Below are positions 27,136-33,089 of a DNA stretch of 36,744 bases, piece by piece. Source of the stretch: Actinomycetes bacterium (GTDB taxonomy: Bacteria > Actinomycetota > Thermoleophilia > Solirubrobacterales > Solirubrobacteraceae). A program made the position numbers and the translations under genes. The notes below the pieces were generated by a model that was not told where the DNA came from, did not search any database, and saw nothing but the letters and a program-made list of their open reading frames with translations. The first letter of the stretch is position 1; each line of letters begins with the position of its first letter. The stretch spans positions 1 through 36,744 of the forward strand of contig JAJZWB010000023.1 in assembly GCA_021846845.1 (NCBI GenBank). The letters are read 5' to 3'.

Positions 27136-27162
27136 ATGTCCGGTTCGGAGGTGCGGCGCTGA
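27136..27162 (+). CDS. Tiny linker ORF between flhB and flhA (8 aa)
   Basis: ATG 27136 is two bases after the flhB stop and its TGA overlaps the flhA ATG as TGATG. It contains the flhA ribosome binding site (CGGAGGTG). Very short, so chance is quite likely; listed because it fits the linker pattern elsewhere. Confidence 0.2.
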   Translation: MSGSEVRR

Positions 27163-29231
27163 TGGAACGCGGGCTTCGCCGGATCCTGGCGCACACCGAC
27201 CTGCTCGCCGCGGTCGGCGTGGTGCTGGTCGTGACGATGCTCGTGATCCCGCTGCCCTCGACGCTGCTGGATCTGCTGATCACGATGAACATCTCCGGCG
27301 CGCTGGCCGTCGTCGTCGCGACGATGTACGTCGACCGGTCGCTGGAGTTCTCGTCGTTCCCGACGCTGCTGCTGCTGACCACGATGTTCCGTCTCGCGAT
27401 CAACGTCTCGGTCACGCGGCTGGTGCTGACCACCGGCGACGCGGGGAGCGTCGTGCGCGACTTCGGTCAGTTCGTGGTCGGCGGCAACGTGATCGTCGGC
27501 CTGGTGATCTTCCTGATCCTGGTCGTGATCCAGTTCGTAGTCGTCACCAACGGCGCCGGCCGCGTCGCCGAGGTCGCCGCCCGGTTCACGCTGGATGGGA
27601 TGCCGGGCAAGCAGATGGCGATCGACGCAGACCTGAACGCGGGTCTGATCACCGACGAGCAGGCGCGCTCTCGGCGCGCCGAGATCGGTCGCGAGGCGGA
27701 CTTCTACGGCGCGATGGACGGCGCCTCGAAGTTCGTCAAGGGCGACGCCATGGCGGCCGTGGTGATCACCGCCATCAACCTGATCGGCGGCATCACGATC
27801 GGCATGCTCCAGCGCCACCTGGGGTTCAGCGCCGCGACCAAGCAGTACTCGCTGCTGACGGTCGGCGACGGCCTGGCGGAGCAGATCCCGGCGCTGCTGA
27901 TCTCGGTCGCGACCGGCATCCTGGTCACCCGCTCGGCGTCAAGTCGCGACCTCGGCTCGGAGATCACCAGCCAGATCCTCGGCCAGCGCCGGGCGCCGCT
28001 GGTCGCCGGTGGGGCGATCATCTGCTTCGCGCTGATCCCTGGGCTTCCGAAGCTTCCGTTCCTGCTGATCGGCGGGCTCATGTTCGCCGTCGGTTGGGCG
28101 CTGCGCAAGCACGGGGTGGAGCTGCTCTCGCCCAAGGCCGCGACGCCGGAGCTGCCGGCCGCGGACTCCGAGCCAAAGGTCGCGGCCCGTGACGAGGTGC
28201 TCAAGGAGCTGCCGATCGACCCCCTGGAGCTGGGCATCGGCTTCGGGCTGGTCCCGCTCGTGGACCGCGGCTCGGGCGGCACGCTCGTGCGGCGGATCTC
28301 GCTGATCCGCCGTCAGATCGCCGGCGAGCTGGGAATGGTGATCCCGCCGGTCCGCATCCACGACGAGGTCGACCTGGACTCGCACGAGTACGTGTGCAAG
28401 GTGCGCGGCACCGAGGTCGCCCGCGGCAGGGTGATGGCCGGCCACAAGCTGGCCATGGACCCGGGCGACGCGGTCGGCAACCTCCCCGGGATCCCGACCA
28501 CCGAGCCCGCCTTCGGTCTGCCGGCGGTCTGGATCGCCGACGCGCAGCACTCGGAGGCGGAGGCGCTCGGCTACACGGTCGTCGACGCCGAGTCGGTGAT
28601 CGTCACCCACCTGACCGAGATGATCCGCACCAACGCGGCGCAGCTGCTTACCCGTCAGGACGTGCGCGCGCTGCTGGACCAGCTCAAGGAGACCAACGAG
28701 GCGGTCGTCAACGAGGTCGTGCCCGACATCCTGTCGGTCGGCGAGATCCAGCGCGTCCTGCAAGCGCTGTTGTCGGAGGGCGTGTCGATCAGGGATCTGG
28801 GCGCGATCGTCGAAGCAGTGGGCGACAAGGCGAAGATCACCCGCGACACCGGGCTGCTGGCGGAGTACGCTCGCCAGGCGCTTGGCCGTGCGATCACCGC
28901 TCCACATCTCGCCCCCGACCACAGGTTGTGCGTGATAACCCTGGACCCAGCGATTGAGCAGGAGGTGGCCACGTCGATCACCCAGACGACCGACGGCGAG
29001 TATCTCGCGCTGGACCCCGTGCGCGCCCAGGCGCTGCTCGGCGCGGTGCGCAGCCAGTCAGAGCAGGCGACCGCGCGCGGCGGGGCCCGTCCTGTGCTGC
29101 TGTGCTCGGCGCGTGTGCGCCGCCACCTGAGGCGTCTGGTCGAGACGGCGATGCCCCATCTCGCGGTCTGCTCCTACAACGAGATCGCGGCCGGCATCAG
29201 CGTTGAGACGCTCGGGGTGGTGAGCGCGTGA
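27162..29231 (+). CDS. flhA: Flagellar export gate protein FlhA
   Basis: FlhA forms a nonameric ring below the gate and docks chaperone-substrate complexes. The 689 residues start at ATG 27162. About eight membrane helices occupy ~14-325. The FHIPEP-type signature is seen as LLLTTMFRLAINVSVTRLVL and the loop MPGKQMAIDADLNAGLITDE, then ARSRRAEIGREADFYGAMDG and ASKFVKGDAMAAVVI. The C-terminal cytoplasmic domain (~340-689) includes DPLELGIGFGLVPLVDRGSG and the export-chaperone docking region. Length matches the family. Stop overlaps flhF as GTGA. Confidence 0.97.
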   Translation: MERGLRRILAHTDLLAAVGVVLVVTMLVIPLPSTLLDLLITMNISGALAVVVATMYVDRSLEFSSFPTLLLLTTMFRLAINVSVTRLVLTTGDAGSVVRDFGQFVVGGNVIVGLVIFLILVVIQFVVVTNGAGRVAEVAARFTLDGMPGKQMAIDADLNAGLITDEQARSRRAEIGREADFYGAMDGASKFVKGDAMAAVVITAINLIGGITIGMLQRHLGFSAATKQYSLLTVGDGLAEQIPALLISVATGILVTRSASSRDLGSEITSQILGQRRAPLVAGGAIICFALIPGLPKLPFLLIGGLMFAVGWALRKHGVELLSPKAATPELPAADSEPKVAARDEVLKELPIDPLELGIGFGLVPLVDRGSGGTLVRRISLIRRQIAGELGMVIPPVRIHDEVDLDSHEYVCKVRGTEVARGRVMAGHKLAMDPGDAVGNLPGIPTTEPAFGLPAVWIADAQHSEAEALGYTVVDAESVIVTHLTEMIRTNAAQLLTRQDVRALLDQLKETNEAVVNEVVPDILSVGEIQRVLQALLSEGVSIRDLGAIVEAVGDKAKITRDTGLLAEYARQALGRAITAPHLAPDHRLCVITLDPAIEQEVATSITQTTDGEYLALDPVRAQALLGAVRSQSEQATARGGARPVLLCSARVRRHLRRLVETAMPHLAVCSYNEIAAGISVETLGVVSA

Positions 29232-31726
29232 CCGATCGCCCCGCTCGCCCGTCGCAGCCCGCCGGCGCCGACCGCGTCGATCAGAGCGGCGTGCGCACCT
29301 ATCGCGGGCGCACGATCGAGGAGCTGATCCCGAGGATCCGCGCCGAGCTCGGCCCGGACGCGATCATCCTCCGCGAGCGCGAGGGGCTCACCGGCGGGAT
29401 CGGCGGCTTCTTCGCGCAGCGATGCGTGGAGATCGACGCGCGGCCGGCGCCGCGGATCAGCCTCTACGACGACGACGACGGGGAGCTGGAGGACTGGGAG
29501 GACGACGAGGGCAGCCCCGAGGGCGACGAGGAGCTCGGACCCGTCGATGACGTCGCGTCTCCGTTCGGGGGCGCGCCGGCGTTGGCGTCCGGGGGCGCGC
29601 CGGCGTATGCGTCCGGGGTCGCGCCCGTGCCGGGGCGGCCGGTCGGCGAGCCCGCGCACCGCGCGTCGCCGCCGATCGCCTGGGGCGAACCGTGCGAGGC
29701 GCCCGCCGGTTCGGGCGGGCCGTTCGAGGCGCCGGCCGCGTCGGCGCCGCCAGCGCGCATGAGCGCGCCGTTCCTCGACGAGGCATCGTTCGCTGCCCGA
29801 CTGGAGGAGGCCACCTACGCGGCCGAGCAGGCAGAGGTCGACTCCGTGGAGATCGAGCCCGGCTCCCCGAGGGCGCCGGCACCGACGCCGGCGTTCATCG
29901 CCTTCGACGAGCTCGGCGAGCCCGAGCCCGATGCCAAGCGGGTCGCCGCGCCCGTGCCGCTGTCCGAGGTGCCCGGAGCGCCGGTGCCGCTGCCGGAGGG
30001 GGTCGCCGCCGAGGCGCCATCCGCGGTGCCCGTCGTCCCGTCTGCGGCCATCGCCGAGCCCGCGGCCGCAGCCGCGGTGCCCGTCGTTCCGCCTGCGGCC
30101 GCGGCCATCACCGAGGCCGCGGCCTCTGCACGCCCAGTCCCCGATCCCGTTCCCGAGCGGTTGCCGGAAGCGCCGTGGGTCAGGTTCGCGGAGCAGGGCT
30201 CATTCGCATCCGCGCAGGGTTTGGTCCGGCCGCCGATAGCGCCGGCGGCCACGGCGGCTCCGGCTCCGGTGCCGCCGCCCGCGGCTGTGCCTGCGGCGTC
30301 GTCCCTGCAGCCAACGCTCAGCCGGCCCGCCGCCCCGGTCGCTTCGGTCTCGGATCCCGTCTTCCCGGTCTCGGAGCCTGCGTCCCCGGCCGCTCGGCCA
30401 GCTGCTCCGGTTGTGGAGCCTCCCACGATCGTGCAGCCCGCTGCCGAGGCGGCTGGACCGGATCCGTGGCGCTCGCTCTCGGCCGCCCCGCGTGCACAGG
30501 CTCCGCGCGATCCGGCGGCGGTTCCGTCGGGCGTCGCGGAATCCCGTCCGTCGCCCTACGGCTATGGGGTTCGCCGCCGCGGCGGCATCCTCCCGGCGGC
30601 CGAGCGGATGCTCCGCGCCGCGCTCGATGCAGCAAGCGAGCACCGATCGCATGGCATTGGGGCTCCGGCAGCCCGTGTACAGGCTCCGGAGCCGCCCGCG
30701 CCGCTCACGGCTGGCCCCGGGACGACGAGCTGGCTCGACCGCGCCTCCGCGCCGGAGCGGATCACGCCAACGCCGCTTTCTCAGATCGAGCACGTGACCG
30801 AGCAGATTCGCCCTGCGCCGGTCGCGCCGGCTGCCTCTGCGGGCGGGCAGGTACCGCCGATCCCCGCCACGCCCACCGTCCCGGCGCCGGGGCCGGCGCC
30901 GGCGATCCACCCGGAGCCGCTTGCGGGCGGGCCCGAGCCCTCCGTGGCGCCGGCGCCATCGGCCGCCTCTGCGCTCGAGGGCGCGGCCGAGATCGAGCGA
31001 CGACTGGTCCTGGGCGGTCTGACGCCGAGCAACGCCTCGGCGCTTGTGCTGGCGACCGTCTCACGCGGCCGTCCGGCGACCGGCGCCGATGAGCTTCGCC
31101 GTGAGGTGCGGGACACCATCGCACGCACGATCCCCGTCCCGCGCCATCTCCCGGCGACGCACGGCGCGGTCGCGATCGTGGGCGCTGGCGGCTCCGGCAA
31201 GACGCGCGCGATCGCCGCCCTCGCCCTCGCGCACGCCAGCGCCGGCGGGCTGGTCAGCGTCGCCAGCCTCGGCGCTCCGGGCCGGGAGGCCGAGCTCGGC
31301 TCGCTTCTGCGCGGGGAGCCGGTCAACGTGATCCCGGCGATGCGCACCCGCGCCACCGCTCGCGCCGTCGCGTCGGCGCGAGAGCGCGGGCTCGTGCTGA
31401 TCGACACCGCCGCGGTGACGCCGCGGGACACGGCGACGATCGACGTGGTCGCCGAGGCTCTCGACGGCTTCAGGCTCGACGGCGTCTACCTTGCTGTCCC
31501 CGCGACCGTGAGCCTCCCGGCCGGCACGAAGCTGGTCGACGGCTTCTCGGCCTTCGACCTCAGCGGCCTGATCGGGACCCACATGGATGAGACCGATCAG
31601 TTCGGCGCGCTGGTGGAGCTGTCGATCGCGACCGGGGTTCCACTCGCCTACACGCTCTCGGGCGGCCGTCTCGCGGACTCGATCGCGGCGGTTGACCGAT
31701 CCGCCATCGCCGACCGTCTGCTGTAG
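29228..31726 (+). CDS. flhF: Oversized FlhF-like SRP-type GTPase
   Basis: FlhF proteins set flagellar position and number through an SRP-like NG GTPase. This one has 832 residues, about twice the usual. Residues ~20-75 are the FlhF N-terminal domain (VRTYRGRTIEELIPRIRAEL, GPDAIILREREGLTGGIGGF). An acidic stretch (~78-105) and a ~450-residue Pro/Ala/Val-rich disordered region follow. The NG domain lies in ~575-832. Its P-loop GAGGSGKT (652-659) is intact. G2 lacks the DTxR motif, G3 is DTAA (726-729) instead of DTAG, and G4 is THMD (784-787) instead of TKxD. GTPase activity may therefore be weakened. No flhG follows. The GTG start is coupled to flhA. Confidence 0.85.
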   Translation: MTDRPARPSQPAGADRVDQSGVRTYRGRTIEELIPRIRAELGPDAIILREREGLTGGIGGFFAQRCVEIDARPAPRISLYDDDDGELEDWEDDEGSPEGDEELGPVDDVASPFGGAPALASGGAPAYASGVAPVPGRPVGEPAHRASPPIAWGEPCEAPAGSGGPFEAPAASAPPARMSAPFLDEASFAARLEEATYAAEQAEVDSVEIEPGSPRAPAPTPAFIAFDELGEPEPDAKRVAAPVPLSEVPGAPVPLPEGVAAEAPSAVPVVPSAAIAEPAAAAAVPVVPPAAAAITEAAASARPVPDPVPERLPEAPWVRFAEQGSFASAQGLVRPPIAPAATAAPAPVPPPAAVPAASSLQPTLSRPAAPVASVSDPVFPVSEPASPAARPAAPVVEPPTIVQPAAEAAGPDPWRSLSAAPRAQAPRDPAAVPSGVAESRPSPYGYGVRRRGGILPAAERMLRAALDAASEHRSHGIGAPAARVQAPEPPAPLTAGPGTTSWLDRASAPERITPTPLSQIEHVTEQIRPAPVAPAASAGGQVPPIPATPTVPAPGPAPAIHPEPLAGGPEPSVAPAPSAASALEGAAEIERRLVLGGLTPSNASALVLATVSRGRPATGADELRREVRDTIARTIPVPRHLPATHGAVAIVGAGGSGKTRAIAALALAHASAGGLVSVASLGAPGREAELGSLLRGEPVNVIPAMRTRATARAVASARERGLVLIDTAAVTPRDTATIDVVAEALDGFRLDGVYLAVPATVSLPAGTKLVDGFSAFDLSGLIGTHMDETDQFGALVELSIATGVPLAYTLSGGRLADSIAAVDRSAIADRLL

Positions 31727-31861: not shown

Positions 31862-31959
31862 TGATCCCGCCCCCGCGCTTCGTGACGATCCAGCGCACGA
31901 GACTCGCTTCGAGCCCATCGAGACGTCCCGCCGAGCGCCGGCTCCCGAAGGCAGCGTGA
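31861..31959 (+). CDS. Linker ORF before the PilZ gene (32 aa)
   Basis: ATG 31861 overlaps the stop of the previous small ORF, and its own TGA (31957-31959) overlaps the ATG of the PilZ gene as TGATG. The peptide is basic (IQRTRLASSPSRRPAERRL) and unrecognised. Its 3' end includes the GAAGG site before the PilZ start. Confidence 0.3.
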   Translation: MIPPPRFVTIQRTRLASSPSRRPAERRLPKAA

Positions 31960-32606
31960 TGAGCCAGCTCGGAGGATCAGGGTCGGTGCAGACGGCGACC
32001 GCCGACAATGTCCGCCCCTTCCCCGGCAGCGGCCAGGGGATCCTGACCACGCTTGAAGGGGAGCGGCTGCCGGTGCGGACCTTCGAGCGGGGACGTGAGG
32101 TGGTGCTGGTCGTGCTCGTGGATGTCGAGGGTGCGGGTCCCGGCTGCACTCGCGACGCTGACCTTGAGTACACGTCCGTCCGCGGTGTGGTGAGGCTCCA
32201 CGGCCAGGCGCTGTTCGAGGATCGCTCGCTGGTTCGCTTCAACGCCGTCGGCGACCCGGAGGTGACGCAGCGCCGCTCGTTCGTCCGCGTCCACACGCCT
32301 GAGGCTGTGACGTTGGATTGCGGCGAGGGGGCCGCGAGCTGCGTCTACACCGTCGATCTAAGCGGTGGCGGGATGCTGCTCGCGGGCGCCGAGTCGCTTG
32401 CGGTCGACCAGGTCGTGCGCTTCTCGGTGGCGCTGGGCGCCGAGCCTCCGATCGAGGGGGCCGGCCGGGTGGTGCGAATCGGTGCCGATGAGCGGCGGGC
32501 CCTGGTGTTCGAGCAGATCGGCGAGGACGATCGGGAGCGGCTGATCCACTACGTGTTCGAGTGCATGCGAAGGGCGCGGGCGAAGACGCGCGGCGACTGC
32601 ATGTAG
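31959..32606 (+). CDS. PilZ-domain protein, YcgR-like flagellar brake
   Basis: The 215 residues comprise an N-terminal YcgR-like beta domain (~30-100: LEGERLPVRTFERGREVVLV, VRGVVRLHGQALFEDRSLVR) and a C-terminal PilZ domain. Both c-di-GMP-binding motifs are intact: R106-x3-R110 in RRSFVRV and D133-x-S135-x2-G138 in DLSGGG. In Escherichia coli (YcgR) and Bacillus (MotI/DgrA), such proteins slow or disengage the motor when c-di-GMP is high. A position right after flhF supports a motor-brake role here, by inference. ATG 31959 follows GAAGG at good spacing; GTG 31956 is possible. Confidence 0.85.
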   Translation: MSQLGGSGSVQTATADNVRPFPGSGQGILTTLEGERLPVRTFERGREVVLVVLVDVEGAGPGCTRDADLEYTSVRGVVRLHGQALFEDRSLVRFNAVGDPEVTQRRSFVRVHTPEAVTLDCGEGAASCVYTVDLSGGGMLLAGAESLAVDQVVRFSVALGAEPPIEGAGRVVRIGADERRALVFEQIGEDDRERLIHYVFECMRRARAKTRGDCM

Positions 32607-32615
32607 GAGCGCGGG

Positions 32616-33089
32616 ATGGCCAAGAGCGACAAGGACAAGGCCAAGACGGCCAAGGATGCCAAGAAGGGCAAGGGCAAGGGCAAGGGCAAGAAGGGCGGCA
32701 AGGCCGACGGGGCGGCGTCGGAGGGGATCAGCGTCGCTGCGCATCCGCGTGCGGCGGCCGCCGTGAAGCGCTCCAAGGGGTTCGGTGGGCTCGCCGGATT
32801 CGGGTTGGCGGCCTACCTCTCCTACAGCGCCGGGGTGCCGGCAGACCAGATCGCACTGCGGGCGCTTGCGTTCGGGATCGCCGGATACATCGTCGCGTGG
32901 GCGTGTGCGGTCGCGATCTGGCGCCACCTCGTGCTGGCCGAGTTGCGCCACGCGCTTGAGACGGGTCAGGCGACCTACGCGCCGCCGCCTAAGCAGGGCG
33001 GTCGTTCCGGTGCCCGGCGGGCGGGCGCGGAGGGGTCGACGGCCGACGCGGAGCCGCAGCCCGTCGCCGATGATGCAGGGGATTCCTAG
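32616..33089 (+). CDS. Unknown lysine-rich membrane protein (157 aa)
   Basis: Not recognised. Residues 1-32 are almost only Lys, Gly, Ala and Asp, encoded in part by an AAGGGC hexamer repeated four times (32664-32687). Two hydrophobic segments follow, at ~55-75 (GFGGLAGFGLAAYLSYSAG) and ~83-107 (LRALAFGIAGYIVAWACAVA). The tail is Gly/Arg/Ala-rich and then acidic. A ribosome binding site (AGGAG at 32606-32610) sits before the ATG. The gene follows the PilZ gene by 9 bases and is probably cotranscribed with it. A polybasic cytoplasmic arm on a small membrane hairpin could bind nucleic acid, acidic lipid or a protein partner; this is speculation. Confidence 0.75.
   Translation: MAKSDKDKAKTAKDAKKGKGKGKGKKGGKADGAASEGISVAAHPRAAAAVKRSKGFGGLAGFGLAAYLSYSAGVPADQIALRALAFGIAGYIVAWACAVAIWRHLVLAELRHALETGQATYAPPPKQGGRSGARRAGAEGSTADAEPQPVADDAGDS

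What the first reader, a model, noticed from the sequence alone, without database searches (positions are those of the whole stretch)
29228..31726. Giant FlhF with degenerate GTPase motifs and a ~450-residue disordered insert
The N- and C-terminal FlhF domains are separated by a long Pro/Ala-rich region with an acidic start. The P-loop is kept, but DTxR is missing, DTAG is DTAA and TKxD is THMD. With no flhG next door, this protein may have become a nucleotide-sensing scaffold rather than a cycling GTPase, perhaps spanning a distance at the cell pole.
Basis: partly seen in the sequence, partly recalled or inferred. Interest (0 to 1): 0.55.

Follow-up and report, generated by a model that had tools for sequence, protein, structure and literature searches.

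The report
FlhF turned from GTPase to tether
This flagellum-placing protein still has the part expected to grip the motor, but its GTP-burning engine is eroded in the same bacterial lineages that lack its usual partner FlhG, which suggests that a molecular switch has become a passive tether.

Summary
Window 29228-31726 encodes an 832-residue FlhF directly 3' of flhA: FliG-interacting domain (FID, residues 22-74), a ~500-residue Pro/Ala-rich disordered linker, and an SRP-type NG domain (579-832) with the P-loop kept, no DTxR, DTAA for DTAG, THMD for TKxD. It is not a private oddity: all 26 tabulated FlhFs of its class (named relatives: Solirubrobacterales MAGs) lack an aligned DTxR; one probably foreign contig is the exception. 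Across Actinomycetota the motifs follow flhG: all 11 FlhFs of flhG+ families are intact; of 48 from families without adjacent flhG none shows DTxR at the G2 site and 16 lack the P-loop. Held-out loci agree where informative (9 intact, flhG in view in 8; 4 uncut ones with neither). Constraint is inverted: in the class the FID is more conserved than the G domain (250 of 253 pairs), in flhG+ FlhFs rarely (5 of 55). Best reading: an FlhG-free tether that grips FliG and uses a non-cycling, perhaps nucleotide-bound, NG domain as anchor. Polar action and a spanning linker are untested. A 2023 survey calls FlhF absent from later actinobacterial classes; FID proteins beside flhA suggest it was partly overlooked.

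The parts
27162..29231 (+). flhA, immediately upstream, overlapping the flhF start (start codon chosen by eye)
   Evidence: flhA found upstream of the FID protein in 62 of 63 loci, the other contig starting at flhF
29228..31726 (+). flhF-like gene, 832 aa
29291..29449 (+). FliG-interacting domain (FID, head of the B domain), residues 22-74, b-a-b-b
   Evidence: matches solved FID 9en1 by profile (E 4.5e-4) and weakly by fold (best E 0.058, prob 0.99)
29450..30952 (+). Pro/Ala-rich disordered linker, residues 75-575
29456..29542 (+). ISLYD motif (residues 77-81) and the acidic stretch after it; motif found in 14 of 16 f1/f2 linkers, 16 of 29 in the class
29780..29842 (+). predicted helix 185-205 in the linker carrying FAARLEEA (F..RL..A-type motif, 12 of 16 f1/f2 linkers, 13 of 29 in the class)
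30596..30640 (+). weaker predicted helix 457-471 in the linker
30962..31723 (+). NG domain, residues 579-832
   Evidence: Pfam SRP54; FlhF 8r9r Z 25.5, 2px3 Z 24.7
31181..31204 (+). P-loop GAGGSGKT, kept
31403..31414 (+). G3 site DTAA (DTxG in canonical FlhF)
31577..31588 (+). G4 site THMD (TKxD in canonical FlhF); T-H-x-D invariant in the 8 sequences of A3
31956..32606 (+). PilZ-domain gene in the place where flhG sits in flhG+ loci
   Evidence: Pfam PilZ 56 bits; BLAST match 3' of flhF in 14 of 30 class loci, some weak, some loci cut by contig ends

Best explanation
An FlhF that has left the FlhF/FlhG switch and works as a FliG tether. Shown here by sequence and models: FID and NG folds kept, catalytic and base-binding motifs lost in the lineages without adjacent flhG, conservation shifted from the G domain to the FID. 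Inferred: the FID binds FliG (as shown for Shewanella FlhF, PMC11236974) and so holds nascent FliF-FliG; the linker is a flexible leash whose short conserved motifs may dock partners; the NG domain is an anchor that may hold a nucleotide but does not run a GTP-driven dimer cycle released by FlhG.
For: Among 59 FlhFs (flhG status set by family after the locus check): Dx[YF]R after the P-loop 11 of 11 with flhG, 1 of 48 without (that one, G015, is a chance DAYR in the helix after the P-loop; the alignment shows no DTxR there); GQxVP[ED] 11 of 11 versus 0 of 48; DT[AIVEP]G 11 of 11 versus 10 of 48; [TS]KxD 11 of 11 versus 16 of 48; P-loop 11 of 11 versus 32 of 48. Held-out loci: 9 of 9 f29 FlhFs keep all motifs, 8 with a DQAxxLR FlhG in view; of 7 f21/f50 loci, 4 uncut ones have neither P-loop nor flhG and 3 are cut by contig ends. 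FlhG: true FlhGs score 155-181 bits; the best hit in the flhG-less genomes searched is 53.6 bits, and the hit ORFs inspected have no DQAxxLR. Constraint: FID identity exceeds G-domain identity in 250 of 253 class pairs and 20 of 21 f26/f32 pairs, in 5 of 55 pairs of flhG+ FlhFs. Folds. Roles of FID, linker and FlhG: PMC11236974 and PMC12826062, passages.
Against: In Vibrio, GTPase-motif mutants lose polar localisation and flagellar formation (PMC6092412, start of abstract in a listing), and in P. aeruginosa GTP binding regulates FlhF-FliG contact (PMC12713375, abstract), so a non-cycling FlhF would need rewiring. The P-loop is kept in 24 of 26 class sequences, so nucleotide may still matter. 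FID-FliG binding is untested in this lineage. The loci share ancestry: FlhG presence needs only 2-3 changes on the FlhA tree, so the Fisher p values overstate independence. For one flhG-less row (G641) only about 0.2 kb past flhF is in view.
Confidence: 0.6

Rival explanations
1. Still a nucleotide switch, but with a different activator: the PilZ protein encoded next door replaces FlhG and couples FlhF to c-di-GMP.
For: PilZ match 3' of flhF in 14 of 30 class loci (several others are cut by contig ends); P-loop residues, D-T of G3 and T-H-x-D of G4 invariant in A3.
Against: DTxR and the G5 motif are lost in the class, and the DTxG glycine in most f1/f2 rows. PilZ proteins are common flagellar regulators, so adjacency may only reflect the cluster (established knowledge, not tested). 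Two f2 genomes have arginine for the P-loop lysine and still have the PilZ match.
Confidence: 0.15
2. A decaying relict on the way to loss.
For: G-domain identity is far below FlhA identity in the class (0.34 versus 0.63); 16 of 48 flhG-less FlhFs lack the P-loop; published theme of degenerative evolution of actinobacterial flagella (PMC10746217, section 7).
Against: The FID is well conserved (mean identity 0.52 in the class, 0.65 in f1+f2), the place after flhA is constant, P-loop and G4 residues are invariant in A3, and the NG fold models with high confidence.
Confidence: 0.12
3. An ordinary FlhF with an unusual sequence that still cycles GTP by a variant mechanism.
For: NG fold and P-loop kept; the Asp of DTAA and the Asp of THMD kept.
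Against: None of the 48 flhG-less FlhFs shows DTxR at the G2 site and 0 of 48 has GQxVP[ED].
Confidence: 0.13

Closest known systems
FlhF of Shewanella putrefaciens (FID 9en1, NG 8r9r; PMC11236974)
   Same: FID + linker + NG layout and both folds
   Different: DTxR, DTxG, TKxD and GQxVP motifs lost; no FlhG found; linker about 500 residues
FlhF/FlhG switch of plasmid-borne reference loci and of actinobacterial families f15, f17, f29
   Same: place after flhA, FID, NG fold
   Different: those keep Dx[YF]R, DTxG, TKxD, GQxVP and an adjacent flhG with DQAxxLR
pseudoGTPases such as degenerate septins (PMC10731463, start of abstract in a listing only)
   Same: G-domain family in which catalytic motifs erode
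   Different: unrelated family; here the loss goes with absence of the activator gene

Membership tests
FlhF family | N-terminal B domain with FID | tested here: met
   profile match to 9en1, weak fold match, TIGR03499 best stretch at residues 22-71
FlhF family | C-terminal SRP-type NG domain | tested here: met
   PF00448 40.2 bits over cut-off 22.7; 8r9r Z 25.5
FlhF family | TIGR03499 equivalog cut-off (174.15 bits) | tested here: not met
   55 bits; in its class sample only 1 of 299 genomes, the probably foreign G118 contig, passes it
FlhF family | gene directly 3' of flhA in a flagellar cluster | tested here: met
FlhF as an active SRP GTPase | DTxR (G2), DTAG (G3), TKxD (G4), GQxVPED (G5) | tested here: not met
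FlhF as an active SRP GTPase | GTP binding, dimerisation and hydrolysis | not testable with these tools
   needs purified protein
FlhF/FlhG two-protein switch | FlhG with DQAxxLR in the genome | tested here: not met
   none found in the 95.3% complete assembly
FliG tether | binding of FID to FliG middle/C-terminal domains | not testable with these tools
   inferred from PMC11236974 (passages)

The most novel reading that the evidence does not exclude
Across Actinomycetota FlhF was converted from an FlhG-driven GTPase into a FliG tether: absence of flhG goes with loss of DTxR and the G5 motif, then G3 and G4 erode, and in several families even the P-loop is gone while the FID persists beside flhA, including a contig named Quadrisphaera (Actinomycetia), from a class where FlhF is recorded as absent. 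If so, the FliG-binding head, not GTP turnover, is the indispensable part of FlhF, and these lineages are natural separation-of-function mutants.
Probability: 0.5. Interest if true: 0.65.

Novelty: new variant of a known kind. Interest (0 to 1): 0.52.

Why it matters
What FlhF's GTPase cycle is for, and whether it is needed to place or build a flagellum, is an open question tied to FlhG. A lineage in which the catalytic motifs and FlhG are missing together while the FliG-binding head is preserved separates the two roles and can be tested directly. It also suggests revising the record that the later actinobacterial classes lack FlhF.

Tried and rejected
Shifted canonical motifs: rejected by alignment with canonical FlhFs. 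Second FlhF or an FlhG elsewhere in the genome: not found. Frame error in the linker: codon-position GC stays coding-like (GC3 0.80-0.92). The class genome G118 looked like an exception: it alone of 299 passes TIGR03499 (190 bits) and its sequence has intact motifs. Its contig carries an FlhF C-terminal half 42% identical to Burkholderia glumae FlhF, then a short FlhG-like fragment (52 aa, 54% identical to the Burkholderia one), and no flhA in the 9.4 kb read; I take it as chimeric or foreign and left it out of the 59-row table. It too pairs intact motifs with FlhG.

Rows left out: six cut at contig ends (G004, G008a, G013a, G090, G080, G178), Pontibacillus (no FID found by the profile) and G118; the C-terminal fragments G008b and G013b were kept. 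The named loci L214, L219 and L220 were not tabulated; they too lack DTxR and read TH[MAV]D at G4. flhG status was set by family; one search checked each locus, but G641 has only about 0.2 kb past flhF.

For f21, f50, f38, f44, f46, f33 the C-terminal part shows no profile similarity to NG (probability under 2%), and two f21 proteins (as well as one f36 and one f65) have no Pfam match, so 'degenerate NG' is not shown for the f21-type group; for f36/f39/f65 it is supported against the class NG (91%) and weaker against canonical NG (54%). Foldseek E-values for the FID alone are weak (best 0.058). The linker-motif shuffles ignore kinship, and neither motif was found in the f5, f10 or f12 rows. 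Of the 54 genomes with a FID match (396 searched; at most 17 candidates scored per genome), 38 were in the main set and 16 formed the held-out set. Of the 41 genomes, I count FlhF in 13, own genome included; other matches are Ffh/FtsY-type. My notebook entry 2 wrongly calls f26 canonical; searches show it lacks DTxR. The first genome-contig scan gave no locus.

Full report
Observation. The ORF 29228-31726 (+) is real and as described. It starts on a GTG overlapping the stop of flhA. The window is a large flagellar and chemotaxis cluster: Pfam finds CheD, FliM, FliN/CheC-type, PilZ and flagellin among the ten ORFs scanned; other gene names I read by eye from translations. The protein matches SRP54 (40.2 bits, cut-off 22.7) and FlhF TIGR03499 below its cut-off (55 of 174 bits). 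The best PDB sequence match of its C-terminal 253 residues is FlhF 8r9r (E 6.6e-11).

Architecture. AlphaFold2 on an eight-sequence alignment (mean pLDDT 57.7) gives a b-a-b-b head (23-72), a linker mostly under pLDDT 50, and a confident NG domain (579-832). The NG domain superposes on FlhF 8r9r (Z 25.5, rmsd 3.2) and 2px3 (Z 24.7, rmsd 2.5), but equally well on Ffh and FtsY (Z up to 26.2), so the fold says SRP GTPase and it is sequence, head and gene order that say FlhF. The head, folded alone, has the solved FliG-interacting domain 9en1 as its top fold match, weakly (E 0.058, prob 0.99), and a profile of 17 heads finds 9en1 as the only PDB hit at E up to 0.1 (E 4.5e-4). The linker is the longest of the 44 measured: 505 residues by the script's boundaries against 71-335 in the other class members. 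Two short linker motifs recur: [IVLF][DSE]x[YL]D just after the head (14 of 16 f1/f2 linkers, shuffle mean 0.05; 16 of 29 in the class) and F..RL..A (12 of 16, shuffle mean 0.7; 13 of 29), the latter lying in the predicted helix 185-205. The shuffles ignore kinship.

Relatives. FlhFs of this kind occur in the same genus, order and class; public titles of close ones are mostly Solirubrobacterales MAGs. In the class the P-loop is kept in 24 of 26 tabulated rows, the two others (f2) having Arg for Lys; DTxR is absent from the aligned G2 site of all 26; DTAGR survives in 3 of the 6 f5 rows and TKxDE in f5 and f10, but f1/f2 mostly read DTxx and THxD. f5 is sister to the rest of the class on the FlhA tree, so an order of G2 and G5 first, then G3 and G4, then the P-loop is the simplest reading (inference).

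FlhG. FlhFs of f15, f17 and f29 and of the plasmid references have flhG with DQAxxLR directly 3'; the other phylum loci fetched show no FlhG-like ORF (some are cut short, G641 about 0.2 kb past flhF). In whole genomes, five flhG+ ones score 155-166 bits with a Bacillus FlhG, and the best hit in any flhG-less genome searched (19, 13) is 53.6 bits; hit ORFs inspected score at most 50.2 bits and have no DQAxxLR. The window genome's ParA-type proteins read by eye as Soj-, Mrp- and ArsA-like, none of those read with DQAxxLR.

Co-loss. Of 59 FlhFs tabulated, 11 are of flhG+ families and 48 are not. Dx[YF]R: 11 of 11 versus 1 of 48 (a chance DAYR just after the P-loop of G015). GQxVP[ED]: 11 of 11 versus 0 of 48. 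DT[AIVEP]G: 11 of 11 versus 10 of 48. [TS]KxD: 11 of 11 versus 16 of 48 (one of these, G040, reads THAD at the aligned G4 site). P-loop: 11 of 11 versus 32 of 48. As a held-out test I fetched the 16 FID genomes not yet used. All 9 f29 sequences keep every motif and 8 show flhG; the ninth contig (G644) begins too close past flhF to tell. Of the 7 f21/f50 loci, 4 uncut ones (G436, G533, G572, G646) have neither P-loop nor flhG, and 3 (G417, G456, G475) are cut by contig ends and uninformative on flhG. Lineages are shared (2-3 changes on the FlhA tree), so Fisher p values overstate independence.

Constraint. Mean identities are FID 0.52, G domain 0.34, FlhA 0.63 in the class (253 pairs) and FID 0.36, G 0.45, FlhA 0.50 in flhG+ FlhFs (55 pairs). 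The FID beats the G domain in 250 of 253 versus 5 of 55 pairs, and in 20 of 21 pairs of the flhG-less f26/f32. So the GTPase has lost constraint while the head has kept it. Still, P-loop residues, the D-T of G3 and T-H-x-D of G4 are invariant across the eight sequences of A3, which argues that the site is not neutral wreckage and may hold a nucleotide.

Mechanism. In Shewanella the FID binds FliG, the NG domain binds the polar landmark HubP, a linker joins them, and FlhG stimulates hydrolysis, proposed to let the C ring be completed (PMC11236974, passages; review PMC12826062, passages). Without FlhG and without DTxR that release step is unlikely here. I therefore propose a non-cycling tether. 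What the NG domain docks onto in these bacteria, and whether at a pole, is unknown.

Literature. A 2023 survey states that non-FlgFG actinobacterial classes lack FlhF (PMC10746217, section 7). FID-bearing proteins after flhA in families f21, f50, f36, f39, f65 and others, and in a contig named Quadrisphaera (Actinomycetia), suggest some were overlooked; the Quadrisphaera FlhA is closest to f39 and f36. TIGR03499 itself finds the head weakly in the four such proteins tested (15.4-29.9 bits, profile positions 4-89). The f-families are unnamed, so placing them in the survey's classes is inference. Searches for FlhF with pseudoGTPase terms (15 of 53 papers listed), Solirubrobacter (0), Acidimicrobi (3) and Thermoleophil (2) listed no title or abstract start describing this; only open-licence papers are held.

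Noticed in passing
window 31956-32606 and 32616-33089: A PilZ gene and a small lysine-rich, possibly membrane protein follow flhF; each has a BLAST match 3' of flhF in 14 of 30 class loci.
   Followed up: partly
L221, ORF from 5989: A FID-type ORF directly after flhA in a contig named Quadrisphaera (Actinomycetia), a class recorded as lacking FlhF; it runs off the contig piece held.
   Followed up: partly
L043 and L044 (G025, G028): P-loop lysine replaced by arginine and the G3 Asp-Thr by Glu-Leu in a flhF still placed after flhA.
   Followed up: no
L177-L184 (families f26, f32): A conserved GRLSG stretch stands at the aligned G2 site in place of DTxR; may be a lineage-specific motif.
   Followed up: no
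L191, L192, L194, L202, L203, L205, L206, L208, L210: FID proteins whose C-terminal part resembles no NG profile tested; fold unknown.
   Followed up: partly
L095 (G118): Canonical FlhF C-terminal half and an FlhG-like fragment of Burkholderia type on a contig with unrelated upstream genes; probably a chimeric assembly.
   Followed up: partly
L108 5572-6577 (G000:C105 near 19832): A ParA-like gene with KGGVAKT instead of KGGVGKT beside an apparent ftsZ; KGGVAKT recurs in hits from four other genomes (L124, L131, L142, L145).
   Followed up: no
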